From Paralvinella palmiformis (taxonomy: Eukaryota > Annelida > Polychaeta > Terebellida > Alvinellidae), in NCBI GenBank assembly GCA_025642065.1, contig JAODUP010000721.1, positions 394,501-458,500 of the forward strand: a stretch of 64,000 nt of DNA, read 5' to 3'. The translations under genes and the position numbers were made by a program. Each line of letters opens with the position of its first letter. The stretch's first letter is position 1. Below are positions 4,078-61,726 of the stretch, in pieces. The notes below the pieces were generated by a model. That model saw only the letters and a program-made list of their open reading frames with translations, did not search any database and was not told where the DNA came from.

Positions 4078-4255
4078 TTGTTACCATCTCAGCTAAAGTG
4101 GCGCAGCGTAGTGAACTGCCTAGAAACTAACGAACCTCTCATTGTTATGAACTCTTCTTGTGAAGGGACGTAAAACATATTCCTGCTTTTCTAAAGCATG
4201 TTGTTGTCAGATGTGTGTTTACATTTGGGGTAATTAACTTCACTTGTTACGGGCA

Positions 4256-7200
4256 ATGCTGGCTGTTAACATCACTAGGAGGATAATTATATCAGTTATC
4301 AACAGAAAGATAAGTAAACACAGCACAGCATGCCAATTGGTGTTGTCTGCTCGAATCCACAGTACAACGACAAACTCGTCATTACCCCGTTTACGATATA
4401 GATCTAATGTTTATGTTAATGGTCAATTCAGCTCAGGTCAGAGTCGCGTACTTCAAGTGGACTGTAAACACAACGATGGACAAGAAGCCAGAAACGCAAT
4501 ATTTATATCCTTAGTGAAGAAGTTGTTATTTCCACTATTCTCTGTAATTAATTCGAACCGAATTAGAAGCATGTATGCCAATCAGACACTGAAGCCTCCA
4601 GAGGACGTCAGGGGCATGAAAATATTGGATGTAAATGCATTCAGAAAACTGGTTCTCATACCTGGATTACGTGTGCCAAATCAGCAGACTGGCATAGCCG
4701 TTGGTAAATTAAAAAATATGCTGCTAAAAATGCCCGGAATCAAGGCTATTGCAGAAGTGAGTGAAGATGATCCTGAACATCACACTCACAAACTCTTTCT
4801 GTTTGATCCAGAAAAAATTAAAAGTATTGAGTTGTTTTTAAAAGAACGAGAAGATGTCTTAAACAGCTGCAGTATTAACAAAGAAAGTGTTCAACTCTAT
4901 GAACTTGAATTAGAGTATAAAAATTGGACACACCATGATGTACTTAGGGCAGTTTTACCAAAACAGTATGATGGAGTTGCTGGATTTAGTAGTGTTGGCC
5001 ATATTCTACACCTAAATATTAGAAATGAGATAATGGACTACAAGCATGTAATAGGTAATGAAAGTGTAACTGTATATAGCAAATTTGATTTGTTATCCTT
5101 ATTTCTTCCTCATTTTGTGCATGTAAACATCAGTTTTGACATACATTCAGGTACTGCTAAATGCTATACCAGTTCTGACCAGGAGATATATTTGAATAAG
5201 TTCTATTCTTTATGATTGTTATGTGCCCAGTTCCAGTTTTTCAGTTCCATTCACTTAATCTTATCAGTTCCAAATCAGTTAATTTCTATTATAATAAACA
5301 AGCTTAAAAGCAGCTTTTGTGGCTGGCTACTTGGGCCTTCAGCTCATATAATATTAAGTAAGGATTTGGAATAATAAAAAAATGTGAATGTTACTGATAT
5401 GAATGTTGATAACATAGTGATTATTGGCGATATCAATGTCATATTCATCACTGTTTCAGACTCTTTTGTCAGAATGCACAGACAGACAAACACTGTCACA
5501 CACATATATTTGCTTTTATTATGCAGAATAATCCAGATGTTACTAATAATTTCTAGTTATCCATTAAATATTTCACGAAACCTTCTTTAAAAAGGGGCAG
5601 TTAAAATCAGGTTGACGTAGTCCATGTCAGTATTTACTAGACAACTCTGATTATAACACAAAGTCAGTTCCACAGTTTTTAAAGACTACCAATATTTGAT
5701 CCAAATGAAGAAAGCAAGCTCTTTATAACAATTATAAGGTTCATATATGGGATGTGATTATACATGTCTCACAATCAGGGTTGGCAAGTTTATGATACAA
5801 TGACAAAAACCATGGATTAATCCAGGGTTTATGATGAGCTTAGGGGGCAGTTTTAATTTAATTGAACTATTCACTAATTGGATGACAAGCAATACACTTC
5901 CCTCTTGGGTTGGTGCTGGCATTTATCAGTGGCTGACCATGCATTGACAGTGACAAGTGGCATCACTTAGTAATCCTCCATGTGGCAAGAGCGAAAGATA
6001 TGTCAAGTCATTCCGGAATTGGAATTTTTTTATGGAATTGATAAATTTGGAATTAAAGTTTGCTACAAAAAATTAAATTCACAAATTAATGTACCATTTA
6101 ATTTTTTCATTCAGAAATATTCCTTCCATGACAATCCTACTTGGAATATAAACTACTCAGAGTAGGTATTCCAAGTAGGCACTCAGAGTACCTGCTCATG
6201 GTAAAAAGTAGTACGTAAAAATGGATTTAGAATTGATAAATCTGAAGTGGAATTGATTAGAATTGACAAAATAGAATTGACCCTATGTCTGTCTGCTACT
6301 CTGATTCCATTAATCCATCTGATAGCTTTCATATTAAATATTAAACAGCCAAGCTTGTATTTTGTCATATGATCCTCCAAGGACTTTGTGATTTGTATTA
6401 TTGATGATTAACGCATCAAATGGACCGATTCAATGTTGTGGTTACTGAATAAAACACATTAAGAGAGACTAACATAAAATATTATTTTACATTCATGTTT
6501 GTAATATATAAATATATTAATTCTGATATAATGATAATCCACAACTAGTTTAAATAGATTAAAAGTGAAAGTTTAAAAAAAAATCACCAAATATATCACA
6601 GTGAATAAAAAGGTTTAAGACAATATTTGACGTCATAAAGGTATTTATGATGGGTTTATGACACTCGTGTCATAAACAGGTTTATCACTGTCATAAACCC
6701 AACCCTGCTCACAATACAATAGAGTTAACTAACTGTCATTATAATGGATAGGTAATTCTGAATGGGAGGAAAATCAACTTGGATGAGTTGGAAAACCTGT
6801 CCACATCATTATTGTTTGCATTAATCTCCTCAGTTTCTGTTCTGATATTTTATGTATACTTATTTTATTTCTCCAATGTATGTTAATTTTAGTATTTTTA
6901 CTTGAAATATGTATATATTATGTGCTTTGAAATAAATAAATTCAATACTATCTTACAGGGTTGGCAAGTTTATGACACAATGTCAAAAACCATGGATTAA
7001 TCCAGGGTTTATGACGGCATGTCATAAACAGGTTTATGGTGGTTTATGGCATAATAGCGTCATAAACAATGGAAGTATTTATTAATTGGATGACAAGCAA
7101 GACACTGGCATCTTGGGTTGGTGTATATCTGTTGCTGACCATGCATCCATTAATGGTGGCTTCATTTAATGATTCTCAATGTGGCAAGAGCTCAATATAT

Positions 7201-9751
7201 CTGATTCTCTTAATCCATTTTACAGCTTTCAAATGAAGTAATAGTTACACATGGTTAGTTTCATGGGTGACTTCAATACAGCTAAAAGGGATGTAAGGTG
7301 GGGGAAAAATAGACCTTGAATCATAATATAGTACATTCTAATTTCTAAGACCAGCCATAAACTATCAAAAGTATATATATATATATATATATTTCATAAA
7401 TATTGGCATATTATAATATAGTACAATGACCAGTCATGTTCAAGGGTGGTAGACCTGCCCCTCCCATCTGGGAATATTTTCTTAGAGTGACAGTGGATGG
7501 TAAAGTTCATGCAAAGAGAACGATGTGTCACCACTGATTCATTGTGTGCTAAGCTACACAACCAAGCCACTGATAGTGATACTGTAAGAGAAACATACAA
7601 TATTATTTTATATTCATGTTTGTAATATACTAATATACTAATTATGCTATCATGATAATCCACAACTGATTCTAAACAAAATAGATAAGAAGTGAAAATT
7701 AAAAAAAATTTAATCACAAAATATACTGATACCGAATAGAGGTTTTGATGGTATATGACACCATAAAGGTATTTAAAATGGGTTTATGACACTGCCATGT
7801 CATAAACAGGTTTATGACTGTCATAAACCCAACCCTGCTATCTTACCTATACTTATAAGAGGTTTGTGATGGACCGTTCAACATTTATCATCCAGTATTA
7901 TGATATAAAGGGAAGATAATATAGAAATCTTCCCTTTATATCATCCTTGTTATTAATGCAATGCATAATTTGTTTCAATCTTCAGGTAAAGTTTTGCTGG
8001 ATAAAATTCCTACAGCTAGAACTGTTGTTAACAAGCTGGACGTTATTGACAGTACCTTCAGAAACTTTGAAATGGAGGTTTTAGCAGGAGATGGCGACTT
8101 TGTGACTCTAACGAAGGAAAATGGCCTCAGTTACAAACTTGATTTTTCTAAGGTTTACTGGAACCCGAGACTAGGTGAGCAATTAAATATGTCCCCATTA
8201 CGCATTACTACATTAAATTACATATTAAACCAACCATTTGTTTACAGCACCAAATGTCATACTGCAATAGAATGTAGAAACCGTCTGCTAGTATAATTAT
8301 AACATGGGAAGCATTAGAGAAAAAAGAAATTAATGAAATTTATCTTTCAATTCTAATGTTGTTTTTTCTGTTACTTTCCTTTAATTATCAGTCAACGTAA
8401 GTACAATTTGGTTGCCTTTTTGAAACGCTGTGTCATAAAATGTTTGGCGTCTAGTAAACTATTTTATCCTTTCCTCAGGAACAGAACATCAAAGAGTTGT
8501 TTCATTACTTCAGCCTCAAGATATTGTTCTGGATGTTTTTGCTGGCATTGGTCCATTTGCTGTGCCAGCTGCTAAGAAGAAGTGTACAGTTTATGCAAAC
8601 GATCTAAATCCACATTCATACCATTGGCTGGAAGAAAATCTAACACTGAATAAGGTGAAAGGAGACTACCGGATCTATAACATGGATGGGCGCGAATTCA
8701 TTAGGACTGTTGTCAAGGATAAACTGGTTTATCACTGGAGTCAGGAGGTACAGTGTGACAGAATGATGCGGTATCATATTATTATGAATCTGCCAGCGAT
8801 GGCTGTTCAGTTTCTAGATGCCTTTCGTGGACTGTTTGCTAATTACAATAGTGAGCAGCGAGAGAAATGGTCATCTTATAGTGAACCTGAGATCTATTGT
8901 TATGCATTTACCAAAGCTGAAGATGGCGAGAAAGATGTGGTAGAACAAGCAGAGAAATACCTCGGTGCACCATTAGGCAATGAACATGTGGTAAGGTTTG
9001 TGAGACAGGTGGCTCCTAACAAGGATATGTTCTGCATTATGTTCAGGCCCAGCAGGGAGTTGCTATTTGATTCTACCAGTAGCCAACAGCTGGCAGGTAT
9101 GACATTGTAAATGGTGTAATTCATCTGGTAACCTTGACTGTCAGTTTGCCCAATATCTGTACTAGGTGCGCCACTGAGCTTAATTATTTTCAAAGTCAAA
9201 GATATTGGTGCTATATTATAAGTTTGTGATGATTATTATTATGTGTACCATCATAGGTGACAACCTGATGTTTGCTATTTTCCAAAACAGAACTATCTGG
9301 TATATATAGCTGTAAACCGTAATGGGTTAATATTTATTACTACAGGGATATTTTTATCAGTTAGGTTCAAAGCAATACGATGACCACCTCATTCAGTTTT
9401 TAATTTTTAAAAGAATATTTGGGAGAAGATTAAGACTAATGTATATTGTTGATAAGATGGGTAGAAATACTTAGCTCTAAGCTGCAGATTTAGGTGTCAC
9501 TTGATAATTTTATGATTCACCATGTTAATATAGTAGTTAGTACAAGTCAACTTGTGTCAAACTTTCGCATTCAGAAACAGAATAACTCGGCAAGTAGGTT
9601 TTCATGATGATAATAACAACAATAACAACTGTAGTAATTTCCTGATCTTATTACTTCTGAAGTTATGCTTTTTCATTTGATTATACATATTTCTTCCCTA
9701 GATTCTGAACCACCAACAAAGAAACCCAAAACAGAGTTGGAAGTTTTATGA
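4256..9751 (+). CDS. TRMT5: tRNA (guanine(37)-N1)-methyltransferase
   Basis: Exons are 4256-5054, 7986-8174, 8479-9096 and 9702-9751; all junctions are GT/AG and phases agree, giving 551 codons (human 509). The enzyme transfers a methyl group from S-adenosylmethionine to N1 of G37, next to the anticodon, in cytosolic and mitochondrial tRNAs. Visible family marks are PPEDVRGMKILD at the start of the conserved part, LRAVLP and GFSSVGHILHLN in exon 1, and VYWNPRLG at the end of exon 2. Exon 3 carries the SAM-binding DVFAGIGPFAVPAAKK and ANDLNP, the Trm5 box MNLPA, and RQVAPNKDMFCI near its end. An in-frame TAA at 4235-4237 precedes the first ATG (4256). The first 105 residues are basic, Ser/Thr-rich and acid-poor, as in a mitochondrial targeting sequence. 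A second ATG at 4571 sits just before the conserved domain and could give a cytosolic form. Intron 1 holds two hAT elements; the short last exon codes a lysine-rich tail. Confidence 0.95.
5776..6707. mobile_element. Non-autonomous hAT transposon, copy 1
   Basis: The 932-bp element opens with CAGGGTTGGCAAGTTTATGA and closes with the inverted TCATAAACCCAACCCTG. It is flanked by a perfect 8-bp duplication CTCACAAT (5768-5775 and 6708-6715), the hAT signature. Subterminal GTTTATGAC/GTCATAAAC motifs recur near both ends, as expected for transposase binding sites. No transposase frame is present. A block of about 290 bp (roughly 5999-6287) is absent from copy 2 and looks like a nested insertion. 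It lies in TRMT5 intron 1. Confidence 0.93.
5999..6287. repeat. Probable nested insertion inside hAT copy 1
   Basis: This AT-rich block interrupts the alignment between the two hAT copies, between GGCAAGAGC and CTGATTCYNTTAATCC. It repeats GGAATT/GAATTGA motifs and contains a perfect 13-bp inverted repeat (CCTACTTGGAATA, its complement about 14 bp later, around 6138-6178). A related stretch, reversed, lies at about 11755-11900 (TCAATTCCACATCAAATTTATC against GATAAATCTGAAGTGGAATTGA), so it is a dispersed repeat of its own. Confidence 0.5.
6956..7837. mobile_element. Non-autonomous hAT transposon, copy 2
   Basis: The 882-bp element has the same terminal inverted repeats as copy 1 and the same orientation. 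A perfect 8-bp duplication CTATCTTA flanks it (6948-6955 and 7838-7845). Only 240 bp separates it from copy 1. The different target duplications prove two independent insertions rather than a segmental duplication. A short (AT)n tract near 7375-7391 is internal. The minus-strand frame at 7394-7717 is not a transposase. Confidence 0.93.
7900..7944. repeat. Perfect 18-bp inverted repeat near TRMT5 exon 2
   Basis: Arms 7900-7917 and 7927-7944 are exactly complementary (the left arm contains GATATAAAGGGAAGAT) with a 9-nt loop. It ends 41 bp before the first base of TRMT5 exon 2, so in pre-mRNA it would sit at or beside the branch point and polypyrimidine tract. Confidence 0.85.
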
Positions 9752-41172: not shown

Positions 41173-44100
41173 CTACCCTCGCTCCCATGTTCTGATTTCA
41201 TTGATTTCCCATTTTTGACTTTCTTTTGATGCAACACATGGTCTCATCAGCAGCTTTCCCTGTCCAGTTGCCTCGGCACATGTTCCTGACTTCGTATGAT
41301 GTAGCAGACCATTCTGGAATATGTTATATTAAACATTTACAGCAAGAACTGCAATTAATAGTAGTATTCTAAATTCAGTTTGAACTAAATCAAAAATGTT
41401 TTCATTATTGAAAGTGTAACATTTATGAGAGCAGCTAAAAGAAAGCTGCGCGCCATTTATACTACCTGGAAATCCAATGTTCTAACTAGACAAGGAATGA
41501 TAGACCAGAGTAGATGTATGATAATTACTGCTCGTCTTGGTTCAGAAGTACTTTAAATATATCTAAACAGTTGATATCTGAAGGCATTGTTTAATTTTAC
41601 ATACATCTGCAAGTTCCCATGGTCCTGATGGATCTACAGGACAGAATACAATTGTTACTCCCTCGCCTGACTTCTCAATACAACGTTCTCCGACTGCCAT
41701 CTGACCCGCAACATTCAGCCGAAACATCTGGAAAGAAAATTATTTCTGTTCACTGCCAATTCATGTACATGCTATGTCTATTCAATAATGCATGAAACCA
41801 TTGAAATATACAAATTATCTGTGAACACGAGGGAGGGCTCTAATTTAACATAAAATATTACTAATTTAACATAAAATATAGTCTTACTTGTTTTTGTTAC
41901 TGTTCAAATAATAAAACAAAAGATAAACTACTTTATAAATAAGAAACACTTGAAACAATATTCCTAATGAAATCTTCAAACTTGAAAGAACTAATGAAGT
42001 ACTGTTTAATACGTATTTTGTGCACCATATGATACCAAGTGAATGGAATAGGATAATCATCAAACCAATTCCAAAAACAGGCAGACCCGCAAATTCCAAA
42101 GAATCCAAAAAAATATACTTAATATCGACAGTGGCCAAATTATACACCGGAATATTGAATAATAGATTAATGAGTTTTCTGGAAGGTAACAATAAGCTAA
42201 ATGATGAACAGTCAGCATACAGGAAGGGCAGGAGTTGTATGGATAATTTGTTTGTGCTTACGTTGTTAATCATTGAAGGAAAATGTCAAAAACGGGATAC
42301 ATTTGTATGCTTTGTTGACTTCTCGGCTGCATTTGACAGTAGTAGATACTTGTTGTTATTAATCAAAGCAGGAAAATATGGAGTAAATGTTAATTTTCTT
42401 AAGGGTATGGTACCGTTAATATAAATGGATATCTCTCTAACTGGTTCACAATGGGATGTTCCATTAGACAGGGTGATGTTTTAGCACCCACAGTATTCTG
42501 TTTATTCATTGACGATCTCATTAATGAAATCAAATCCTTAAACTGTGGGATTGATATGGAAGGAGTTGATATTTCAGTACTAGTTTTCGCAGATGATATT
42601 GCTTTGGTTGCATCTGACATGGAAAAGCTCCAAGAAATGACCAATAAGTTGGAGCATTGGTGTTCACGTTGGAAAACGACTGTAAACACCAGTAAAACCA
42701 AACTGATGCATTTTAGAACGTGATCAACACCAAAAACATTGGCCACGTTGGTATACCAGGACTGCGATCTACTGTTCGTTGATAGCTATAGATATATGGA
42801 TTTGAATTTGAACGAATACCTGGACTTCTCCCACACAGCAAGCATACTAGCTGCTGCTGGCATTAGGGCTCTAGGTGTTCTCACTTATAAGTACTACAAG
42901 ATGAAAGGTATGCACTTTGAAACATACAAAAAGCTATTCGATACATGTGTACTGCCAGTGCTAAACTATGGCAGTGAAATATGAGGTCATAAACATTATC
43001 AGAAGCTGGAGACAGTATTACACAGGTACATAAAACAATTTCTTGGAACTACAAAGACCACACCCACATCGATGATATTGGGTGATTTTGGTGAATACCC
43101 CATGAGGATCCAGAGACAATTGAAAATCATCAAATATTGGCTACAAGTCATTTCTCTTCCCGATAGCAGACTCATACGAGGTGTATATATTGTAATCAAA
43201 CAAAACAACATAAGCTGGTGTCACGATGTTCGTGAGAAACTAACACAATGCGATATGGAAGATGGGTATCTTGCTGATGGTCATCCATCCACGGACACAT
43301 ACTTTATGGAACTAATTAAAGCCAGACTACAGTCCAAATACTGTGAGATATGGGCTGGTGATGTGAACACTATGTCTTGGAGTGGAGCACTATCAAAGCA
43401 TTCTACCTGATGACTACACTACAACAACGATACATTGCGATGCGTGGTGGAGGCGTTCTCCCAATTGAAATAGAGAAAGGCAGATGGCGTAACAAACCAA
43501 GGGAGCAGCAGATAAGTAAACAATGTGACAGTGGGGAGGTCGAAGACATTTATCATTTTAAATTACATTGTATATGCCATAGACATTTAAGAGCAACATA
43601 TTTACCGGCAAATGAATCTCTAGAGAACATTTTAATGGACAGAATCTATTTGAAAATTTATCAATTTATATAACTACGGCATTTCTTTCTCGTAAATGAT
43701 GTGCATGTTTCTTTTTTGTTTCTATGTTCACAATTATTTATTATAACTCACGTAGTATTATGTAATGTGATGGGTGCCTCATAGGCCAATGTTGGCCAGG
43801 CATTTTCATTAATGCGTGGCACATTCATCAATATATATATATATATACATACATACATATAAAATATAGTGACTACCGTATATACTCGCATATAAGTCAC
43901 ATTTTTTATATTCCAAGATCAATGCCAAAATCGAGTGTGTCATATATGTGGGTCAGACTAAAAGGGAAGGTAATATTTGTCATAATTATGGGGGAAATAC
44001 AATAATATTGTTTTTCAACCTTAATAATAAATATATGAACAATAAACAAATTTATTAGGTGTGTTTTTTCTGTTGTCTTTCGAAGCCAAACTTAATCGTG

Positions 44101-47100: not shown

Positions 47101-50100
47101 CGTCACTTGAAATAAGCAATTTGACCAGAAGTCTGTAGATCCCATTTAAAAACATGTAAACAAATGTTAGCCAAGAATAACTCCAGAACATAACGTAGTA
47201 ATCTCGCTAAATCATGACCGACATTCAGCCATATCAGTTTGAAGCAGAAGAAACGTTACAAGATTAATATGGTTCAAATTGTTTCAAAAAAGCAGAATCC
47301 TTGAAGAAAGGGCGAGGAGAACCAGGAACACTAACTGGTGTCTATATGAACTTTGTGTACTAATGGACTCCTGGGTCAGGTGACATCAGAGCACTTGACT
47401 TTTCTCCTTTCTGGCATCCGGTGATATCGGGTATAGTCTGTGATTATTGTTGTGATTTTTTTGTATACTGTTATAAGTATTACATATTTAAGAATATTAT
47501 CTGAGAGTGAACTGTCCCTTTAAATAAAAAATCAAATTTTTTAAGTTTTAAAAGAAATGATGATTTTTTTACAACCCTGTTTGAAAGACTGAAAATTAGC
47601 ATGAAGAATAGATCAGAATTAGAAAAATTAGAACATGGAAAAAATCACAGATGGACTGATATTAACAATTGTGGTGTTGTTAAAACTCTTTCAAGTTAGT
47701 GAAATGTGATATTTCATTTCTACACTCACTTGACTCGTGCCTCATCACTTATATTCAACTAATGCTTAAGGTTGATCCTATATAAAAAGCTAATGCCTAT
47801 GATTGATTCAACATGTTCAGCTATGTCTTGAACAATCAATATTTCAACCAGTGCTGATAAACAGCCTAGTCATAAATCGATATATATGACCGTTAACCTC
47901 TGTTCTTACCTGATTTCCACCAAGATGATGACATGGTGTTACATCAAGGTAACCTCCTCCCCCAGCTCTCTGTCCTTTTGTATCCCAGCACATTGTACCA
48001 TGTTTCTGTTTGATCTAAATGAATAAATAATTTATATCTGTTTTTTTAACTATCCAGCTGAATATTACAAGGCTATAAAACAGAGAGATAAATCACCTCG
48101 CATTAAAAATATATCTACAAAAATAAACATGCTCTTTCATTGTGATAATAGAAAAAAATTGTTATCATTTCATAAATTTGAGTTAATATACAAATACAAA
48201 AATGTTCCTATGGCAACACTGATTTATAAGGTAAAATAAGTGAAGTGCACCTCTCCCCATGCTCTATTGCGTGGTGGGTAAGGAAACTTCTCCAATACAT
48301 CATAGGCAATATTTTCAATGAACCATTTGAAGCTTTTACAGTTGTGTGTCTTTTTAAACTCCAGCTGTTTTGTTATGTTGCTGACGGGAAAGCCTCGGAC
48401 AGCTGGCTCACGTGTGTAAAAATATTCTTTATATTCATCGTCGAGCCACACTTCCACTACACGCATGTAGTTCTGCAATATATAAATTAATCAGAACACA
48501 TAACAAACATCTTAGATTCATGGTGAACAATTCACACGACACCATATATTCCAATAAATTTACTATTTAATGATTATTTACAACAGAGAATATATTACCG
48601 TATATACCAGGTACTTGGGTATAAGTCATACTTTTATACTCCAAAATCGGAGCCTAAATTAAGTGCGTCTTATACATGGGTCAGACTAAAAGGAAGGCAA
48701 CATTTGGCATAATTTAGGGGGAAATACAATAATATTGTTTTTCAACCTTAATAATTAATAAATGAACAATAAAAAAATTATTAGGTACGTTTTCTCTGTT
48801 GTCTCTGAAAGCCAAACTTAATCATGATAACCGCTATGATTATTTAATCCGATGCACTAATTAGGGATCCTGATCACAAAGACACGTTGTTACTATCAAG
48901 ATATGTGAGTGTGTTACTGAACAGACTGGTAAATGAAGCCAAGCAAAGAATGACCATAGAAATATTACAGCAAACACTGTGTTAATTACTTCCAAAGCTG
49001 GCACATGGGAACTACTAATAAACTACTTCAAATAGCATTATGGAAACCAACGACAGCAACAGGCAACCTGAATTGGTCATTGTTACCTATTGTCACACAG
49101 TGGGTGAAAATGGTCTGAGATTAAATCAATTTTGCCATCATTACCAAATTGTTCAAGAAGTGCTCTATCAAGAATGATTTAGATGGCATGAAAGATGATG
49201 TATTGTGGGCTGAACAGTACAACAAATCCAACACTTACTCCGACGAAGAAGGCGACAACATATATGATGACACACAAACAGATACAACAGATGTTCAGTG
49301 AAGAGAGTGATAATGATGAATTTTTGAGTTTTGAATCAATATTGCTGATTTTAGTGTGTCTTATATGCAGGTTTGACTCCAGGGGGTTTATTGGTTCTAA
49401 AACAGGTGCGTCTCTTATTCATGAGTGTGACTTATGTGTGAGTATATACGGTATGTACAGATGGTCTCAGTCTTAAGTTAGACTGGATGCAAGTCAGTCT
49501 CCATTTATTCTATAGGACTACACATCGTCTTATACCATCATAATTGTATTATATCTCAAACATTACATACTACAGAACAATTGGTTTGTTATTTACAAAA
49601 CATACAAAATACTTTGTGTATAAACAGAGAAGAACGGACAAAACATTTCTAAAAAGATAATAAAATTTTCAAAATTATTTACACCAATTTCCTAAATAAT
49701 ATAACTAAAATTGTATTTCATTAACAAAACAGTACTGTAGTGTTTGAATACTTACCATCAAGTTAAGAAAACGCTGTACAGTACTATATAGCTGCAAATT
49801 AGTTACTTCCCAATTACTGGTAAGCTATTTGATGGTATCGATTTTGAAGATATTGTATTTTAAATATTAATGGTCATAAAGTTGAAAAGTTGTGCTGCCA
49901 TCGTAAAGTCGAACAGTCATAAGTTGGGTAGGTTGTAAGTCGATGAATACCTGTACGTATACTTTTACTGTAACAGAAAACGTCCCCTCATTACATAATC
50001 TTACAAATGATATACATACAGCAAGAGTGATTGGTATTTTGGATTGTACATTTCCAAATCCATAAGGCATGCTGTTCCTGTAGACATGACCAACCCTTGA

Positions 50101-52791
50101 ACAGGGTACCCACTCAACACTACCACCACACTGCCATATCTGAAAATATTAAATATCTTCAATAAGCATATTAAAATCTCAACTGTACATGTGGTTAATG
50201 AAAGAATACAACTGTTGAATCCCTACTCATAAAATACATAATAATGCACAGTTTGAGCCACATAATTTATAAACTATAAACTAAATACACAAATGTACAT
50301 TACATATGTTAGATATTCTTGGGATCCATGTTTTATCACCAAAGGGATTAACAACAAAAATACAAACAAGTCTCTTTAAACTGGCTAACTCTGATAAATA
50401 TTGTAACACAACAATATTAATGATTGATAGATAAACAACACCCCAATGTGAATGTCTTACCTTAAATGAAAGTTCAAAGTTTTCACCTCCCCATATCAAT
50501 AGGCCTGGATCATAAGCCCCAAGCTCAAAGAAGTATTTTCTGTCCATGGCAAAAAGACCACCAGCATGTGTAGGTGACCTGCACAAACAGGAAACAATGT
50601 AATAGGAGAGCAGCACATTATACACAGTTCATGAAGCAGTTAAACGGTATGTATTGTTCTGTTATCTGTTATCATATATTTAGACATGATTTTAATTACT
50701 GGTAAACAGGCTGAAATAATGTTACAGTAGAATTACCTCCATTACTTTTACTAATACAACTAGTACTACTACTAGTGGTAATTCTTGTTCTTCATTTGCT
50801 GACTAAAAAGGACAGTAACAATTCAAATACAAACCTATTCTTTACTATAAATATGATATTATGATGATATTAAATAGATTAAGCTAGCACTATGATTATC
50901 TGTAAGCAATACATTGACCCCCTCATTAAACATAACCATTATTATTGAAGTCTGCATCATGAACATTTTATCACTATTCTCTATTTTCGGGTGTGAATAC
51001 GATTCCTAGTTTTCTGGTTCCTTAATAATAGTGATCTGAGGGCATTTCTTTAATGATTCGGAATTAAATTCTAGAATAGGAATCCTCCAGTTTGTGGTTC
51101 AAAACTAGCTGTGTAATAGCTGAACTGACATTTTAAATGATTACATTATAATGAGGGAACATTGTAAATTTGTATTGTTTAAACAGTGCCAGTGCTAGAT
51201 AATGACAAGAGTGGAAAAGTGTTTGTAATAATAAATGGGGAAAACCTAAACACCAGAACTATACAGATAAGGAAAAGTAGTAATTATCATTAGCCAATAG
51301 TCAAGAAACATTAAAGGACCACAGACACACTCATGCATGTACGCACACACACAAGCACGCACACACACACACACACAGATATTCTGTATGTATTTTACCT
51401 GTATTCTTTACGACAGAAATCAGATATATAGTTAAAAACAATGCCAAAACTAACAAAAGAATCAAGAAAATGTTAAAAGTGACTGCACTTAGGTATCTTA
51501 TATAAGTCATTATTTTAAAGTTACATTTATTTTTAAACATTTGTTATGATAATACCCAAGACCGAATCAAATTGGAATACAATGGTCAAGTAAGAAATGA
51601 CAAACTTAAAAAAGCCAAAGTTAAAGCTAAGTTTTTAATTTAGTATATTTTGGACATCTGTAATAATGTAGAGAATCACAAAATTTCTGATTAATATGAG
51701 AATAATATGCTTACCACATAATTTCCAAAAGAGACACATTATTATTTAATTAACAGAAGCACATCCCCTCAACAATGATCGTATTTAATGAATACTAATA
51801 AATTTCAGTCTTCATAATGTTTTAGTGCCATGCTCTGTCATTCATTATTAAGAAAAAAAAACATAGGACACATGGCTATTTTCCAACACAACAAAGCCAC
51901 CTTTCATCAGACGTATAGCAAACTTGATATGACCACCGTTTCTTCACATCTTACGTGTTCACCAATTTTAATGACTAGAAGTATTTACATACACATGAAA
52001 ACATTTAATTTTCATTAATGCCACTGACTCCCAAAAGAAACTTAATACGGTATGTATCAGTAATAATAACAACAAATATAAAGATATTTATAAAGGGCCT
52101 AATTCTGTAGACTGTTTCCTGAAACTGGACACCGAAAAATTATAGATGTGGGGGATGAAATATTTAAAAAAAAAACAATGACTAAGACAAACATTTACTA
52201 AAAACATTACGGTATCAAATTGTCTTGTCTGATTACCTAAAAAGCTACAGTGATTTATTTTCATGATGGGAATTTCTGTAAACAAAGGGAACACACACTT
52301 TCACCATTTAGTTTTACATTTATATAATAAACTGTACATATCATATGTTGGGGCTTCGGCTACACTGGCCCTTCAATCTCCATCGACAATATTATGTACT
52401 ATTATTGCATTACATCTATTGATAAATGGACATGGAAAATAAATTTCAGTTCAGTTCAGAGATAAACCTGCAGATTAATGTTGTTAGTACCTTCATTCTT
52501 GTTCGTTGTTCAACCTTCATTTCAATTGCAGCACAGTAATAATGGGATTAGAACAGCTCACTGAGCCAACTCACCAGTAAGGCTCTGATGTATATTGATG
52601 TTTGTTTCTTTCCTTTTGAGGCACAGAATTTTCCTTGTACAGGAAGCCCCACTCAAATATACCACGGAAGAGCTGTCCAGGTTGATAAACTGGACTATAG
52701 CGGAAGTTGTCCCAGTCAATGCCATCAATGAAGGGGACAGCTAAAATTGTTCTAAAAGTAAAGTTTAAAAAAGGAAGATCAATTTAGCTAG

Positions 52792-52842
<51 letters not shown>

Positions 52843-55800
52843 TTTAGTGAAGCTATCCTATTCTGGTCTTGTGTGCTGAGAACCAGTTCACAAGAATGGT
52901 GCTTGGTCAAAATGCCTATAATACAATCGCATCAAACAGATTTAAATTTGGTTAGACCCATAAACTGCCTGCTCAGTAGTAACACCATGTACGTGAATAA
53001 ATGAAAGATAGATAGATATTTCAAAACACAAAAGGAAATGTTAAGTGAACACAAAAGACAACTATATGCAAGACATTCATTGCATTGCGAACCTGGCAAT
53101 TCTGAGGTCTGATAATCCAAACAAATATAAAATTCCGAGGCATATTGCTAACTACATGTAGTAGATCGAATGAGATTGAAAGATCTAGTTTATGGTCATT
53201 TGGCTAGTAGTGATGAGCCCTGGTTTGCTGTATTAATGAAAGCAAATACACCACAGTGTTATTGGCAGTTAGGAGAAACATGATGGTGAATGAGGTGAAA
53301 AGTTGAGGACAGTCATTAACACCACAACATAATAACAGTATAATATTGTGTCATGACACTGTTAGTTTGTTCACAAAAATTACATTTACTAAGGACAACA
53401 AATATATTGGGACTAATGTGCTTATAAAATACATGAAAAGTAAAAGAGAGCTGAATCAACCAATATGAGTATTGATGAAAATGTGTTGGTACAGTGGTGC
53501 AGCACAGAAAAAGATTATTACAGTTTACACTGCTAGCAAAGCAAAGCAGAGGAAGCCCTTTTCAACAGATCTAAAATGAAACATGCAGTAATGGCATAAA
53601 TCATTTGCAAGAATGCAGCATATTTATATACGCAGCACTCAGTATTGATAGAAACCACCATAACATAATAGGAACATGATTACACAAAGGCTTATTTTGT
53701 GACCACCCTATGTACAATCTACGAATGAAAGAGATCCGATCACATGACAACGTGTAACCTCACCAGTAGGGTTCACTCATATGCTCTTGTTTATTTAGCA
53801 CAGCAGTAGGCGCTTGGATTTCTTTATAAAGGAAGCCCCATTCAAATATGCCCCTGAAGAGTTTCTGCTTTGGATACACCGGGTGATAATGAAATGTTTC
53901 CCATGATATACTGTCCACTGTTGGCACCACTAAAATAGTCCTGAATAAAAAAAGAGAGACTACATCTTTAACTATGGCAGCTATAATTTACCATATACGC
54001 TCATGTAGAAGTCGACTTCGTGTATCAGAAGATTTGTATTTATGGTCTCTTTAAAGTTAATAGTATCCAACTTGAGTATAAGAGAAATTTTATCGTGGAA
54101 ACAAAACTTCACTGGGAAAAATTTACATTTCCTCTCTTTCCCTGTTGAGATTGAAATATTAACTTTATGACAAAAGAATTAACAAAAACCCATCAAACTT
54201 ATTAAAATAAGGTTCATGTGAAATATGTGTGCCATGCAATATATAGCTTGGTGATTTGTACAGATGGAATAATTTTGAGGTACTCCTTAATTGGCTATTT
54301 GAATAAGGATATAGTCTACTTTTGCAGAGCAGTTTTTGGCCACTTAAAATATTTATCTTGCTAAACGATATTGTCACGTGACATTGGATGTTTGTTTATT
54401 TTGTTTGAGTTATTTAGCCGATCATGCCTGAGGTGTTCGACTCCCTGGAGAACCGTATTTCACAAACACAAGTATTAGCCAGATTCGAACTCACGAGCTG
54501 GATGTTAGAACACCACATGTTGGATATTATTATGTACTGTATGAACTAGTGGTGACTCTATTTGTTAATTGTTTCCAGCGATTGTTGCTATATATTCCAT
54601 AAATGGGATATGTCAGCATTCTGACAGACATTGATTTTCATTTCTTCCATTATCGTCCCACAATTCCTTTTTTTATTCGTCTATTAATTCCATCAAATAT
54701 TTCTGCCTTTGACTGTTGCTCATGTACAACACAAATAGACTTGTATCTACTAGACTCTTGTACTGTTTCCTCGACTTGTACACGAGTATTTACGGTAGAC
54801 AATTACACTGTCTGGTCATAATTCTGCACTAACATCAACACCACTGGATGTCAAGCTGTGGAACTAAGTAAACTAGCATGCAATGAAAGAAAACCAAACA
54901 ACAACAGCGTTGAATGACGATTAGTGTTAATGCAATCTGACTTATGTAAAAACAATGAAAATAAATACAAATTGTATCTCTTACTGAATTTAAACTGAGT
55001 CTTGAACATACATTTTTATAGAATATTTTGTTGTATTTATTATCAATGTGATGACTGATGTTAAAAATGGCTGGATTTCTACTGGACAGAAAGGTGTTTC
55101 TTCCCTCTTTTGTTGGGAGACGTAGGAGGAAACAATATTTTGCTGGGAATAAATGGCACAAAATCTAGAGAAAGAGGAAGTTGAGTTACATCATTAAAAC
55201 TGCCCACTCGCTATAAATTATAATAAACAGCTAGAACAATAAAATAAACATAATATAATGAAGTAATAATAAAAAACACACATGCATGCATGACAATCTG
55301 AGCATTTAGTATTATAGAGCTAACCTAATTTAACTGATTCATTTGTCTTAAATTCCAAACTTTTGTCTAAGACATACACACATTATTATCAATGTAAATT
55401 TAAATAGTTAGATGTAATATATAAATACATTTCCAAGATTCCAGGGTTTCATGTATAAACAATAAACCATCAAAACAAATCAGTGTTCAGATAATTATCT
55501 AAACACCAAATCAATTTCTATATTTATGAGTTCCATAACATAAATTTCTTAATTTACATTGTTTCCTAAACAAAGTTTTGTTTTTTCTCGATGTTTTATT
55601 TTAAAGCCTTCAACTTATTTTCATACTGTGTCAGTGGCATAGAAAGGTTTTAGCAAACAATACTATCATATATCTAAGATATTTCCCAGTAAAAGTTCAT
55701 AAAGCAGAGTAAATGACCATTGATCAACACGAGAAATGCCAATCTATTTTGTTGACGGCTTGTTCTTAAATTTGATTTGTGAAGGCCTAGATTTTGGCAA

Positions 55801-58800
55801 ATATATTCTGTATACTACATATCACCAAAAACAAAACTGACATAGATCATTTAATAAATTCCACTTTAATATACATGTTAAGCAGCAAAGATCATTACCA
55901 ACACCAAATCTAAATGTATGAGAACACTCAACACATCTCATTTGCCAAAAATGCATAAAACACTTCTAAATACACTGATTCTGTAAAGTCAACGTGTTAT
56001 ACCACAAAAACAATAAAATGTCTCCCATTTGTGCAATTTTGGCATGGTATAGCTAACATATTTGCAGAAACAGGATAATTTCCATAACTTTACCGCATAT
56101 ATTAACTGTAACTTGTAAATATGACTTTCATTTCTATGCTTAATGGAACATTAACCGTTATACAAGACAGTCTATACATAATATATCATTATGGAAACTA
56201 TTCTGAAAAATGCCACAAAACTTACCTATCATAAGCAATACGAGCAAGCAGTGGCACAAGCCAGTTTCTATTACATTCGCAATGGGCATCCAAAAACACA
56301 ATGACATCACCCGTGGAATAATCCGCTCCTAAAGTACGTGTACGGATTAATCCAAGACGTTCTTTATTACGATAGAGCTTCACTTTGCCATCAAACTGTT
56401 TTACGTAGTCATCTAATTTCTGCTTCAGGTGAACTGGATTGAATATTAAGAAGAAAGAAGTTGGCCAAGTAGTTTATTTCCAGCCAACAGAAGCAAAGCA
56501 TTTATTTTGATGTTTGTTTAACATCACAAACATCTTCAAGCATATATATCAGCATCAATACTTTTATATTAAAGTCAACATGATAATAATCTGGTTCTAT
56601 TCAACGTGTACCTTTAGAACTAAAGTCATCCACCATGACGACTTCATGCAGAAGATGTGGTGGGCTCATGTTGATGACACTGTGCACAGTACGCACAAGT
56701 GTAGACCAGCCTTCATTATGGAACACGATGATAACACTAGCAGTTGGCAACTTTTCAGGATAATGCCAATATTTGCATCTGACATTGAAAAGTAATCACA
56801 GCAAAACTAATTAAAGCTAATAACAGAAATGTAGCTATATTTACAATTAAGTGTAAAACAGCTTGAAATATATCCTGGGGTTATATTTAAATTAAGATTA
56901 CCATAAAGAAAATCATTTTGTCCAAACAAAAACATTGAAAACCTTTCCTAATTAAAACTAACATAGGCAATGCCAGCTAACTGTCGGTTGGCTGGCTTTG
57001 ATATTCCGAATTCTAAACAATGCTAACAAATCCCCCCCCCCAGAAAATAATCATACACGTTTTCAGCGATAACATAAAAAGTTTAAAATATTGGTAAAGA
57101 TAGGATATAAATGTAAAAGAAATACCAAATAAGTATTCGACATTTTATGCTGAATTATAAAAAGTAAACCTGTCTGTTCTACAACAATCAGCATGTTTCC
57201 GTCAGGTTGTTATTAATCTTTCTTTAATGAGGTCAAACATCTCTGACTCAACAATGATCTGCCACTCAGTATTTCCATAAAGTCATATTATTATAACTCG
57301 CAGCCTAAAGCCATAAAAGTTCATCACAGATGCATGGTCAACTTCCTATAAGATAATCTGTAACAGCTGGTAGTACTCTAACTGAATCTCAAATGTATGG
57401 TCTTCAGTTAAGCGGCAATAACTTTACCAACATCTTTAGAACAGACTAACCACACTTACTCGTACAATAACTTTACCGACTTCTTTAGAACAGACTAACC
57501 ACACTTACTCATCCATACGAGTATCTGGTATTGTCCTGTCCATGGCAATCTTATCACTAGCAATCATATTAAAACCAAATTCTCGTAAAGAACGATCAGC
57601 TGCCATCTTCTCCTCCATACTTGTATAAATCGGCTGTCCACCTTCACCTGAATGATACAAAATTTGAAGACGTCTAAGGACTTGTTAATATCACACTTTG
57701 TATTTGGAGTATCCCATTCAGACAATCAGCATCATTCGTCTTCGTTACCAATAATCCAATTAATTACGTAAATACTTAAAATCATAAGAAACCAACTCTT
57801 AGGCTACAGAACCAAATTAGTAGACAAGATCAATCAATTCACAAAACATATTAATTGGCTTAAGTCAGTCATAAACAAATTATATTAGTATAACACCACT
57901 CCAGTGTGATATTAGTGTCTAATGCTTTAATCAAGAGAAGAATTTCTCAAATATTACATAACAGCAGATGGTACATTTATATTTTTATTACATGTGCATT
58001 ATTATAATATCAATAACTATATTTAAAATGTCATCCCATTCTAATTTTGTTTTGTGTATCTGATGATGATGATTGATGTTTTACGGCCACTTTTGTGCAC
58101 ATGATAGGCTAAATAGGCCAAGCGACCTCCAAAGGTAATGAGGTGAAGTCAACAATGAAACAACCTTCACATATGCCCATGTCGAGATTCGAACACGGTG
58201 GTAGTGATCTATGGTCCAACACACTACTGCTAGACCACGGAGGTGCACTCTATATATCAATGTGAAATTATGTAGAAATACAAGTCATACCAAAGAAATA
58301 CTTGATTAACTGAACACCAAAAACAACAATCACATGGACTTCATTACTTTAACTTTTGAAATTGTGTAATATGATTAAAATTCAGTTAATCATGAATGCC
58401 TCACAAAACATGAAACTAAAATAAATAAGGCTGAAGAATATATCATAATATTTTACAAAAACCATGTAATATATTTGTTTAGCATGAAGCGAGCATAAAA
58501 TACTCATTTATATATCAGGTTTCAAGTTAGGACTATCCATCACTGAGAGAACTGGAAAGCCAATTGAAATACTACAAGTTACTCATGTTGCATTATTGTT
58601 CATTAATATAAGCAATGAAAACATATAGTGTACAATGGGAATTTTTTCTATATTTCCAATAATAAGGCCTGAAATAACATAGTTTATGGTGAAATTAGTA
58701 AATAATTGGCTTGACAACCATTGATTAGAACCAGGTAGATGATAAATACTAAAATAAATATAACTTCGATAGGCCAATCACAATACATCAGAATTACATT

Positions 58801-61726
58801 TTACATGCCACAATGCTACAAAAACAATCATAAATCAAAATGCCAAACTAAAGTTCACATCATCAAAGTATAAATATATAAATCCACATATTTTTAGTGT
58901 ATGATTCTAGTAATGTACTAACTATTTAGACACAGACCACAAAAACATTTTGCAGAATTATTTTAAATAACAATTTTCTTTGGTACAACAAAATTTGTCA
59001 AACATTTAAAGTAATACATGTCTTATGTGTTAGTTTTTCACAAAAATGATAACCTAACATCTACTGCTCAAAGTTTAAACTGTGTAAACCTAATATGACA
59101 TGCTGTTAGATGAAGAAGAAAAAATATTATAAGTGTGCTCAGACCAGTGAGCACTTACTGGTTTAAGGGTTTTGGCAAACATACAACAATTGACAATTCT
59201 GTTAAATTCTCTCTGTGGTCACAAGTCCACCACTTTGACACCCTATTCCATATATGATGCCATTATAATGTGGTACACTGTAGATTCATCCATACAGCAC
59301 AAACTCATAAATGTAAGAGCTTATAACTCAAACAGCATCATTAACATAGTGTGTGTGTGTGCTTCAAATATTCAAAAATTATAACTTTCCCCCCATGTTC
59401 TGGCAAATATCAGGTGCAAATATGCACCTGATATTTGCCAGATAAAATGGCAATATTCAGCAATAATCCCAAATGAAGCCCACTTCACTCAATCATCATT
59501 GATTTAATGATTGGGGAGTTTTAAACAGCCCACCGATAACACAGATTTCAGTTATGGACCACACCAACCACATCATAGCAGGTTATCAGTATATCTGTGA
59601 GACTACATAATATAATTAATTTCAAATACCCCCTCATGTTTACTACTATTTACCATAAACTGTACTGACTTATATCTCAATATTTTAATTAAGCTAATCA
59701 AATACTACTGAGGGGTACTATTTGCGTAGTTAAATGCTGTGTTTAGTCAATAAAAAGACAGCAGACATCCCTCAATTGAATCATTTACTTCTATTCTTGA
59801 AAATTATCTGGATCATCAACAGTGATCAATCTAATACAGACCAGACATGGGGGTCACATATATTTAAAATTATTTAAATACAAATCCAATACTTTTTCAT
59901 TGGGTTAAATACAAATACCCTAAAAATTAAATGTATTTAAATAAAAATAACCATCATATTATAAAGATCAAATTAGTCACACAAAAATCAATAATTTTTT
60001 TAAATGTGTAATTTTTAAATTATCTTACAGTGATTTAAATAAAATGACTTAAATACAACAACTCTTTCCTATTTCTGCTGAAATGCCTCTCTGCTGTACC
60101 AGATGATGTTGACTTTTTGTTGATTGGTAGGGACTAAACTGTATAAGTGAACCCAATCATGACTTTTCCTTATCTTGATTAATAGTCTCACACACACACA
60201 CACGCGCGTGCACGCATACACACACATACTAATAATAAGACAAAACATGAAAAGAGACAGTCTAAACAGGGAATTATCACTTCAAACTAAACAGTAATTA
60301 ATTCCTCAATAACATCCATACATGTATATAAGTACTTATGTTCCTTGTTATCATGTGATACATACAACATGCTTTAAACTGTAACATGCCAATGTTACAC
60401 AAAGACATATGGAGTAGCAGATTGGAAGCAGCTTTTGTAGAAGCTGATATTAGTACAGTACAATCCCTCCAACTGCCATCAACATTGATTGGTAATTAAA
60501 ACAACCTCAGAAGACCATTGGGCTATGTCCTTTAGTTAAATTCTTCAAACAAAAATCTCAAACATTTAATAAGTGCAGTGAGTTGTAGTAATGTCAGTGT
60601 AGCAGATGGAATGTATATCTATAAATGAAGAACATATGCTGAAAGGTAAGCACCTTTAAAGCAATTTCAGATCTGCTCATTGGGTTTCACGCATATGGAG
60701 ATTCATATTACTCCATTATCCAATCTAATGATAACATTCCAATGAGGAAAACTTTACCTTTGATTGAGAAGGAAGCCACAAGAAACTATTACATTTAAGT
60801 GATCACTAACTCCACTTTACTACGATAATGGAGTAAATAACTTCTGTATATATGATGATATTAGAAAATATTTCCATGAACACTTTATGTTGGTGGCAAG
60901 ATATCAAGATTAATAGTAATAATACGTGCAACAATTTTTTCGATTTAAAAAAATCAATACTCTGTTATTTAAGCACAATTACTTTTTTCGAACACAGAAA
61001 TAGTTTTAAAGTATTTAAATACCTTATGAATACAAATGTATTTGATGCCCCTGTGTATGATAGTTTGATACAGATAAATATGTGTCAGCTGATAATAAAT
61101 CCTCCTCAAACTTTTAATCTCAATTTAACAACAAAACCTGGGTAAAGATACCCACCCAAACCCTGGATTGGTATAAGCTAGTTTCAGCTCGGATAGGATA
61201 AATGCTAATTCAGGTCTTCAATATGAGAACACATATTCTTATTTCAACATACCACTTTACTAGGTCAATATTATGATCATTTTCTACAGCCGTTACCCTA
61301 CCTGGTCCTGTGTGTATCTTATAATCTCTTGGCTCAAAGTTACCAAGTTCTCCTGGTTTCATCACCTGTCGAGGACCATAATGATGATCTTTATGAATTG
61401 TATCTTCTTCCTGTACTATGTCAACACCATTTGGAGCCTGAGGAAGAAATAATACATTTGTTATTTATATTTAATTCCATTCATCACAAAAAATTACTTC
61501 TCTAATCATTTAAAATCCAAACTACCTGCTCTGAAAATCACATATACTGGATGATATATATGCCCCATATTATTATGATAAAGAATGCAGATAGTCATAT
61601 TTTTTCTACCTTTATTGGCCGCAGAGAGCTGTGTCCTTTATACATATGAATATTTTGTTTGTCTTGATTACTGAGAAAATCTTTTTCTGTTCGACCAATC
61701 TGACCATCCACTTTAAAAGATAAATC
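41173..61726 (-). CDS. GALNT7: Polypeptide N-acetylgalactosaminyltransferase 7 (N-terminus outside window)
   Basis: A Golgi type II membrane enzyme of family GT27 that adds GalNAc from UDP-GalNAc to Ser/Thr, mainly of already glycosylated peptides. Exons in transcript order are 61726-61610, 61437-61302, 57647-57509, 56778-56612, 56433-56226, 53940-53764 or 52751-52575 (alternatives), 50578-50461, 50139-50020, 48472-48251, 48014-47910, 41727-41605 and 41313-41173. All are GT/AG with matching phases. With one alternative exon this gives 590 residues; the human protein has 657, so the cytoplasmic tail, membrane anchor and part of the stem lie to the right. Family marks: [49 protein letters not shown], the metal-binding [20 protein letters not shown] with [18 protein letters not shown], and the GALNT7-specific NYMRVVEVW and [15 protein letters not shown]. 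The last three exons form the ricin-type lectin domain (CHHLGGNQ, ending SQKWEI). Conservation with vertebrate GALNT7 is clearly higher than with other GALNTs. Confidence 0.95.
41890..43840 (+). mobile_element. Decayed LINE in GALNT7 intron, antisense to the gene
   Basis: Reverse-transcriptase pieces run in order but in shifting frames. They are [36 protein letters not shown] and [12 protein letters not shown] (42020-42424), then [19 protein letters not shown] and the catalytic FADD box with [15 protein letters not shown] (42451-42723). Downstream frames (42739-43673) include [11 protein letters not shown] and an RNase-H-less C-terminal part with a CxxH-like end (HCICHRH). Several stops and frameshifts separate them. 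After a short 3' UTR it ends in a TA/CATA repeat near 43830. It differs from the two (ATT)n-tailed LINEs in this window. Confidence 0.85.
43876..44450. mobile_element. pogo/Tigger-like non-autonomous element, copy 1
   Basis: Starts TACCGTATATACTCGCATAT and ends with a degenerate inverted end (GTGGGTATATTGGTA). The interior matches copy 2 over several hundred bases (for example GGGTCAGACTAAAAGG). It codes [10 protein letters not shown] near 44391-44417, a piece of a pogo-type transposase. The C-terminal part found in copy 2 is deleted. It inserted right beside the LINE tail. Confidence 0.75.
44460..46890. other. GALNT7 intron, nothing recognised
   Basis: 2.4 kb of AT-rich intron between elements. 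The short frames show no family signature. Confidence 0.6.
46899..47523. mobile_element. MITE with TTAA-type ends
   Basis: The left end (C)TAAAGGAACTGTTCAC and the right end GTGAACTGTCCCTTTAA are inverted copies. The right flank is TTAA (47520-47523); the left is mutated to CTAA. Such ends fit piggyBac or Kolobok-type non-autonomous elements. About 620 bp, no transposase. Confidence 0.7.
48598..49451. mobile_element. pogo/Tigger-like element, copy 2, with transposase 3' remnant
   Basis: Perfect 10-bp terminal inverted repeats CCGTATATAC/GTATATACGG are flanked by TA on both sides, as in Tc1/mariner-pogo elements. Towards the right end a frame reads [20 protein letters not shown] and then an acidic tail (SEESDNDEF). 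This is the C-terminal signature of pogo/Tigger transposases. The rest of the gene is missing and stops interrupt it. It lies in the GALNT7 intron between exons 48472-48251 and 50139-50020. Confidence 0.88.
51342..51377. repeat. (CA)n microsatellite
   Basis: CA run with a few interruptions in a GALNT7 intron. Confidence 0.9.
52575..52751 (-). CDS. GALNT7: GALNT7 alternative catalytic exon B (proximal to the next exon)
   Basis: 177 bp, preceded by TTTTAG and followed by GTGAGT. It completes an Arg codon split after AG, encodes [20 protein letters not shown]..., [12 protein letters not shown]..., and ends SEPYW with the last codon split. It has exactly the same length and phases as exon A and about 59% identical residues. 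Either can join the same flanking exons. It follows the DAHCE exon and precedes the GGLF/WGGEN exon. Confidence 0.92.
52788..52841. repeat. (CT)n-(CA)n compound microsatellite
   Basis: A CT run (about 52788-52811) and a CA run (about 52812-52841) lie 37 bp upstream, in gene sense, of alternative exon B. In the pre-mRNA the order is UG repeat then AG repeat, close to the 3' splice site. Confidence 0.92.
53764..53940 (-). CDS. GALNT7: GALNT7 alternative catalytic exon A (first in transcript order)
   Basis: 177 bp, preceded by TTATTCAG and followed by GTGAGG. Encodes [20 protein letters not shown]..., [12 protein letters not shown]..., and ends SEPYW. Length and both phases equal those of exon B, so the two are homologous tandem exons about 1 kb apart. 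Both keep the core FEW; differences cluster before and after it. Confidence 0.92.
54400..54525 (-). repeat. Possible third tRNA-derived SINE
   Basis: On the minus strand GTGGTGTTCTAACATC and then GAGTTCGAATCTGGC resemble a degenerate A box and a good B box at tRNA-like spacing. They are followed by about 60 bp and an AAACAAAATAAACAAAC tail. Only one copy is present in the window. Confidence 0.4.
54530..56220. other. GALNT7 intron, nothing recognised
   Basis: AT-rich intron. No exon is needed here because phases of 56433-56226 join directly to either alternative exon. Confidence 0.6.
57416..57513 (-). repeat. 49-bp tandem duplication containing a splice donor
   Basis: Two copies (57416-57464 and 57465-57513) differ at only a few positions. 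In gene sense each contains GAGTAAGTGTGGTTAGTCTG. The first copy in transcript order supplies the real donor of exon 57647-57509; the second is an identical potential donor 49 nt downstream. Using it would add a TAA right after GAG and truncate the protein. Confidence 0.9.
58060..58248 (-). repeat. tRNA-derived SINE, family B
   Basis: Minus strand: CCGTGGTCTAGCAGTAGTG (A-box-like), then TGTTCGAATCTCG (B box). A body of about 130 bp follows, ending GTAAAACATCAATCATCATC. This 3' end recurs at 29122-29170. It is unrelated in body to family A. No clear target duplication is seen. Confidence 0.75.
58249..59395. other. GALNT7 intron, nothing recognised
   Basis: AT-rich intron without classifiable repeats. 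Confidence 0.5.
59399..59442. repeat. Perfect 20-bp palindrome with 4-nt loop
   Basis: Arms 59399-59418 and 59423-59442 are exactly complementary (left arm core CAAATATCAGGTGCA) around AATA. It is the strongest hairpin in the window, inside a GALNT7 intron. Confidence 0.92.
59840..60060. repeat. Possible hAT-like AT-rich relic
   Basis: CAGACATGGGGGTCAC followed by repeated ATTTAAATACAAAT-type motifs in both orientations resembles the ends of some animal hAT elements. No second end or target duplication could be identified. Confidence 0.25.
60186..60230. repeat. (CA)n with CGCGCG core
   Basis: CACACACACACGCGCGTGCACGCA-type alternating purine-pyrimidine tract, capable in principle of Z-DNA. 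Confidence 0.85.
60240..61260. other. GALNT7 intron, nothing recognised
   Basis: AT-rich intron. The 97-codon plus-strand frame at 60852-61145 has low-complexity AT-driven composition and no family signature. Confidence 0.5.

What the first reader, a model, noticed from the sequence alone, without database searches (positions are those of the whole stretch)
52575..53940. Tandem homologous 177-bp exons in GALNT7 that swap part of the catalytic domain
Exons 53764-53940 and 52575-52751 are both 177 bp, start and end in the same phases and share about 59% of residues, including SEPYW and LFRGIFEWGFLYKE. This is the pattern of mutually exclusive exons born by tandem duplication. In GalNAc-T2 the equivalent segment (GGFDWNL) contributes Phe280 and Trp282 to the peptide-binding pocket. 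Both exons keep the matching Phe and Trp but differ around them, so the choice could change acceptor preference. Because 177 is a multiple of 3, frame alone does not forbid skipping both or including both, so another mechanism must enforce the choice if it is strict.
Basis: partly seen in the sequence, partly recalled or inferred. Interest (0 to 1): 0.75.

Follow-up and report, generated by a model that had tools for sequence, protein, structure and literature searches.

The report
Swappable exon pair in animal GALNT7
An animal sugar-transferase gene carries two interchangeable versions of an exon that shapes its substrate groove, and splicing both in together would create a stop codon exactly where they join.

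Summary
Confirmed: two 177-nt exons (A 53940-53764, B 52751-52575, minus strand) with equal phases, 60% protein identity and AG/GT borders in an invertebrate GALNT7 gene. Both look constrained: the 24 differences avoid all 20 columns conserved in at least 95% of 194 homologues, and pS 0.91 far exceeds pN 0.29. B is in the nearest homologue, an apparent transcript ORF; no orthologue of A turned up.

Mutually exclusive exons is the best explanation, but no RNA was available. Two corrections. GGFDWNL of GalNAc-T2 is residues 272-278, not Phe280/Trp282, which are Tyr and Glu in A, B and all 194 homologues. And A joined to B reads TAC TG|A, a stop at the junction, so double inclusion should feed NMD or truncate the enzyme although both lengths are multiples of three. 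Of five T2 groove-contact positions in this segment, Val255 (Gly in B, Ser in A) and Tyr284 (Ser, Gln) differ.

The kind is known: GALNT13, Pgant5 and gly-5 have tandem exon swaps, and PGANT5A/B differ in specificity. Apparently new: the paralogue, the segment, the split stop, and a rotifer GALNT7 gene model with three tandem copies. The split stop is present, not shown to be selected (about an even chance).

The parts
53764..53940 (-). Exon A, 177 nt, phase 2 to 2, upstream alternative copy; first base G (AG|G Arg), last bases TG (TG|G Trp)
52575..52751 (-). Exon B, 177 nt, phase 2 to 2, downstream alternative copy; first base A (AG|A Arg), last bases TG; the form found in homologue P0001 (54 of 60 residues identical)
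56226..56433 (-). Shared upstream exon e4 (208 nt, ends GAT AG; holds DAHCE)
50461..50578 (-). Shared downstream exon e6 (118 nt, begins G TCA; SPTHAGG...WGGEN)
61302..61437 (-). GALNT7 exon e1 of this partial model
57509..57647 (-). GALNT7 exon e2
56612..56778 (-). GALNT7 exon e3
50020..50139 (-). GALNT7 exon e7
48251..48472 (-). GALNT7 exon e8
47910..48014 (-). GALNT7 exon e9 (lectin domain)
41605..41727 (-). GALNT7 exon e10 (lectin domain)
41173..41313 (-). GALNT7 last coding exon e11 with stop
52752..53763 (-). Intron between A and B, 1012 nt; splicing it would give the TAC TG|A stop
52792..52840 (-). (TG)14.5 then (AG)10 tract, 41-89 nt upstream of the B acceptor; possible regulator site, a lead only

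Best explanation
A and B are alternative, mutually exclusive exons made by tandem duplication in a GALNT7 gene. Shown by sequence: equal length, same phases, compatible splice sites, strong protein constraint, a place that covers core strands and part of the acceptor groove, and a stop codon formed when A is joined to B. Inferred: (1) each mRNA takes one of the two, giving two GalNAc-T7 isoforms with the same catalytic residues but different groove surroundings, hence different preference for (glyco)peptide acceptors; (2) splicing factors bias the choice, since neither splice-site type nor spacing forbids A-B splicing; (3) A+B mRNA is cleared by nonsense-mediated decay, as the junction stop lies upstream of six further exon junctions; (4) mRNA without either exon is in frame but loses 59 residues with core strands, so its protein should not fold.
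For: Length, phases and splice sites. Constraint: codon positions 1/2/3 differ at 16/18/38 of 58, pN 0.29, pS 0.91, Fisher p 8e-12; 20 of 20 columns conserved at >= 95% in 194 homologues kept by both, chance 1.7e-6 for 24 differences; neutral simulation keeps at most 8 of 20, or at most 15 of 20 at the milder overall divergence, in 20,000 runs each. Junction stop. Three strands and a helix in the exon in the P0001 model. T2 contact positions 255 and 284 differ. Precedents: GALNT13, Pgant5, gly-5 have tandem exon swaps; PGANT5A/B differ in activity. A second GALNT7 model with tandem copies, rotifer P0114.
Against: No RNA evidence for either junction in this species. No protein with an A-type exon was found (35 hits, best 63% identity), while B is in the nearest homologue; 90% clustering can hide isoforms. 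In a narrower set of 58 rows A departs from 3 and B from 2 of 29 columns conserved at >= 90%. A has a long branch and does not group with B in the exon tree, though one clade A+B+P0001 is not rejected (p 0.29). The junction stop hangs on one synonymous base and is about an even chance given Arg and Trp. No extra intron pairing.
Confidence: 0.68

Rival explanations
1. Regulated unproductive splicing: both single forms are made, and A+B joining is itself used as an off switch, the TGA-bearing mRNA feeding NMD to set the GALNT7 level. The pair is then not strictly exclusive.
For: The junction stop and six downstream junctions; nothing in splice-site type or spacing blocks A-B splicing; U2AF1 is a pair whose double form is cleared by NMD (PMC5224494 passages).
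Against: No sign that A+B mRNA is made in regulated amounts; constraint on A as protein needs A-only mRNA to be used too.
Confidence: 0.15
2. A is a fossil or rarely used exon; only B works.
For: B is the form of P0001 and is closer to nearly all homologues in the two lists scored; no A orthologue found.
Against: A is open, has both splice sites, keeps 20 of 20 conserved columns, and pN is far below pS; neutral drift does not give this.
Confidence: 0.1
3. Mutual exclusion is enforced by competing RNA structures (docker and selector sites in the introns).
For: PMC6071210 (passages) calls this the major mechanism and says the NMD scenario does not apply to exons of multiples of three.
Against: Best duplexes between the three introns (-65.5, -69.0, -67.8 kcal/mol) lie inside the range of 15 shuffles each; the split stop is an exception to the cited premise. 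The scan is weak without relatives.
Confidence: 0.05

Closest known systems
Drosophila Pgant5 isoforms A/B (GalNAc-T1 orthologue; PMC12776162: abstract, passages, section 7)
   Same: A GalNAc-transferase with alternative versions of about 60 residues in the catalytic domain that alter acceptor activity in vitro
   Different: GalNAc-T1 type, not T7; segment 398-457 with the flexible loop and helices I-II, which lies downstream of the segment here (placement by recalled motif order); rescue and kinetics are known there, nothing is measured here
GALNT13 / Pgant5 / gly-5 tandem exon substitution events (PMC9741552, passages and section 17)
   Same: Same gene family, tandem homologous exons used as substitutes in vertebrates, arthropods and nematodes
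   Different: GALNT7 is not in the list in that section; which segment is swapped in GALNT13 and gly-5 was not seen
U2AF1 exons Ab/3 (PMC5224494, passages)
   Same: Tandem homologous exons; mRNA with both copies holds stop codons and is cleared by NMD
   Different: 67-nt exons, not a multiple of three; here 177 nt and a stop split across the junction
Brachionus calyciflorus GALNT7-like gene model P0114
   Same: Tandem copies of this very segment in a GALNT7-like protein
   Different: Three copies in one predicted protein, the first cut short; DNA and RNA not seen

Membership tests
GALNT7 (GalNAc-T7) | Best full-length match is T7 rather than another GalNAc-T | tested here: met
   6iwq 557 bits against T10 434 bits; on the 156-residue piece around the exon alone T10 and T4 score higher
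GALNT7 (GalNAc-T7) | GT2 catalytic domain plus ricin-type lectin domain | tested here: met
   PF00535 and PF00652 above cut-off with either exon
GALNT7 (GalNAc-T7) | Preference for GalNAc-bearing peptides | not testable with these tools
   needs enzyme assays; preference recalled and named in a reference title seen
Mutually exclusive exons | Similar length, same reading frame, compatible splice sites, sequence homology (criteria of PMC3228551, passages) | tested here: met
Mutually exclusive exons | Junction reads for each exon, none joining the two unless unproductive (PMC5740500, passages) | not testable with these tools
   no RNA reads; P0001 shows only a B-type form in a relative
Exclusion by NMD of the double form | Double inclusion gives a premature stop well upstream of the last junction | tested here: met
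   TGA at A|B, six junctions downstream, the nearest 176 nt away; actual decay not tested
Exclusion by U2/U12 mixing or steric hindrance | Incompatible splice-site types, or donor too near the next branch point | tested here: not met
   GT-AG borders throughout, U12 type excluded by eye only; A-B intron 1012 nt
Docker/selector RNA structure | Intron pairing beyond chance, conserved | tested here: inconclusive
   no excess over shuffles in one sequence; no relatives' DNA

The most novel reading that the evidence does not exclude
A stop codon split across the junction of two frame-neutral alternative exons is an evolved, general fail-safe: exon A ends TG because its last codon is Trp, and the synonymous Arg base that opens exon B is held as A, so NMD can police exons whose lengths are multiples of three, a case that PMC6071210 says NMD does not serve. 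In GALNT7 this segment is a repeated target of tandem exon duplication (this animal and a rotifer), making acceptor preference switchable by splicing.
Probability: 0.2. Interest if true: 0.68.

Novelty: new member of a known kind. Interest (0 to 1): 0.45.

Why it matters
If both forms are expressed, one gene makes two GalNAc-T7 enzymes that share their catalytic residues but differ at groove positions that touch peptide in GalNAc-T2, a natural swap test of what sets acceptor preference. The split stop shows that a length divisible by three does not exempt mutually exclusive exons from NMD control, which can be counted in any annotated genome. The rotifer gene model suggests that the same segment was duplicated more than once.

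Tried and rejected
Searched without result: an A-type exon elsewhere (35 hits, best 63% identity); other double copies (349 hits, 120 listed; of the 195 proteins held only P0114 has more than one copy; the unlisted hits were not seen); duplicates of the gene's other exons in the window (none at E < 0.05); intron-intron pairing. The age of the duplication is unresolved: in a 60-column tree A stands apart from B, but AU tests reject none of three clades tried (p 0.29, 0.16, 0.22). In one search two library methods for dN/dS failed and the third gave no dS because synonymous sites are saturated, so I report pN and pS. Other GALNT genes of this genome were not examined, because the genome search with exon e6 did not complete.

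Papers: passages only of PMC4432651, PMC5224494, PMC7969005, PMC5740500, PMC6071210, PMC3228551, PMC6994419, PMC13039441 (human GALNT7 exon 6 skipping), PMC11062102 and PMC13247117; PMC12776162 abstract, passages and section 7; PMC9741552 passages and section 17. On GALNT exons I saw no report of tandem exons in GALNT7; two searches listed 10 of 3,303 and 10 of 36 papers. On junction-split stops in frame-neutral exclusive exons I saw none; one search listed 20 of 608 and 6 of 7. I judged from listings and the passages named; the library is open access only.

Full report
What is there. On the minus strand of the window lies most of a GALNT7 gene: 12 coding exons between 61437 and 41173, of which 11 would be used per mRNA. 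Matches to the N-terminus of P0001 lie at 61726-61607 and beyond the window's end. The protein matches human GalNAc-T7 (6iwq, E 4e-166, 557 bits) well above T10 (434 bits), although the 156-residue piece around the exon alone scores higher with T10 and T4. With either exon it carries the GT2 and ricin-lectin domains. The host assembly has 594 Mb and no relatives held. In a tree of 43 GALNT7-type proteins (exon removed from the window's row only) the window pairs with the unnamed protein P0001 (100/99) and then, less firmly, with the annelid Capitella (93/83).

The pair. Exons A (53940-53764) and B (52751-52575) are both 177 nt, open, phase 2 to 2, with AG/GT borders. Identity is 36 of 60 residues including split codons. 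The assembly has two matches to exon B at E <= 0.001, B itself and A. No other exon of the gene has a second copy in the window at E < 0.05.

Both copies are constrained. Codon positions 1/2/3 differ at 16/18/38 of 58; pS 0.91 (saturated), pN 0.29, Fisher p 8e-12. Of 20 columns conserved in at least 95% of 194 homologues (195 held, P0114 left out), A keeps 20 and B keeps 20. The chance that 24 differences avoid 20 of 60 positions is 1.7e-6. In a narrower set of 58 rows, 29 columns are conserved at 90% or more; A keeps 26 and B 27. Neutral drift to the observed third-position distance keeps at most 8 of 20 columns in 20,000 runs and is stop-free in 5.7%; at the milder overall distance it keeps at most 15 and is stop-free in 7.5%. 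The flanking introns do not align convincingly, so the duplication is old. In the 60-column exon tree B pairs with P0001 (100/98) and A stands elsewhere, unstarred, on a long branch; a clade A+B+P0001 is not rejected (p 0.29). Age and order are open.

The junction. e4 ends GAT AG and e6 begins G. A is G...TAC TG and B is A...TAC TG. So AG|G and AG|A both code Arg, and TG|G codes Trp before SPTHAGG. But A joined to B reads TAC TG|A, Tyr-stop. Six exon junctions follow, the nearest 176 nt downstream, so by the usual exon-junction rule (established knowledge) such mRNA is an NMD target. If translated it would lack WGGEN (exon e6) and everything after it. Skipping both exons is in frame and leaves 492 instead of 551 residues of this partial model, but removes core strands: in the model of P0001 (mean pLDDT 88.5, 59 sequences) the exon, residues 293-352, holds strands 295-304, 321-325 and 331-335 and helix 338-341. 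The stop depends on one synonymous base (AGA rather than AGG); given Arg and Trp it is about an even chance (my estimate). It is shown to exist, not to be selected.

Where the swap acts. PMC4432651 (passages) lists eight hydrophobic T2 contacts with peptide: Val255, Phe361, His365, Leu270, Phe377, Phe280, Trp282, Tyr284. Five (255, 270, 280, 282, 284) fall in this segment by alignment. Residues in B/A: 255 Gly/Ser; 270 Phe/Phe (gapped region, placement uncertain); 280 Tyr/Tyr; 282 Glu/Glu; 284 Ser/Gln. At 255 homologues have Gly (182), Ser (11) or Arg (1), so both versions are common there. The 24 differences lie at T2 positions 249-268 and 283-297, around an identical 14-residue core LFRGIFEWGFLYKE; net charge (K+R minus D+E) is 0 in both.

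How the choice may be made. All borders are GT-AG and the A-B intron is 1012 nt, so neither spliceosome type (judged by eye) nor spacing forbids A-B splicing. Best duplexes between the introns lie inside shuffled ranges, 15 shuffles each. A (TG)14.5(AG)10 tract lies 41-89 nt upstream of the B acceptor; TG tracts bind known splicing regulators (recalled), so it is a lead only.

Relatives. P0001 (85% identical over the query, 626 residues read through on a 3,091-base contig, hence probably a transcript) carries a B-type exon, 54 of 60 residues identical to B and 35 to A. No A-type exon was found. All 195 proteins held contain the segment; 194 hold it once and P0114 of the rotifer Brachionus calyciflorus holds it three times in tandem, the first copy truncated. 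Two unnamed proteins that resemble P0114 by eye, P0124 and P0125, hold one. This hints at an independent array at the same site, but P0114 is a gene prediction whose DNA I could not see. One search listed 120 of 5,296 hits and 120 of 349, and isoforms of one species would be merged by the 90% clustering, so absence elsewhere means little.

Known context. Tandem exon swaps are on record for GALNT13, Pgant5 and gly-5 (PMC9741552 section 17). PGANT5A and B differ in residues 398-457, and one loop residue shifts activity (PMC12776162); that segment, flexible loop and helices, is not the one here. [quoted passage not shown] PMC5740500 excuses joining reads only where joint inclusion shifts the frame. 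PMC11062102 lists junction-made stops for skipped exons but only frameshift for exclusive pairs. The split stop here is a small, testable exception.

Verdict. Expression of A, strictness of choice and any change in acceptor preference are unproven.

Noticed in passing
window 57416-57510 (-): A 49-bp unit occurs 1.9 times in tandem (95% match) and copies the 5' splice site of exon e2 (GA|GTAAGTG) 49 nt further on; use of the second site would read GAG TAA, a stop.
   Followed up: partly
P0114, residues 263-416: Rotifer GALNT7-like gene model with three tandem copies of the same exon segment, the first truncated.
   Followed up: partly
window 52792-52840 and 51320-51377: TG/AG and TG-rich repeats (minus strand) in the introns before and after exon B; possible splicing-regulator sites.
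   Followed up: no
GALNT7 homologues, positions of T2 Phe280 and Trp282: All 194 homologues examined have Tyr and Glu there, which may relate to the glycopeptide preference of T7.
   Followed up: partly
window 4244-9110 (+): Open frames that look by eye like a tRNA methyltransferase Trm5/TRMT5 gene in pieces (label recalled, not tested).
   Followed up: no
window 2814-3284 (-), 31725-32231 (+), 42020-42424 (+): Open frames with reverse-transcriptase-like motifs, probably non-LTR retrotransposon remnants (by eye, not tested).
   Followed up: no
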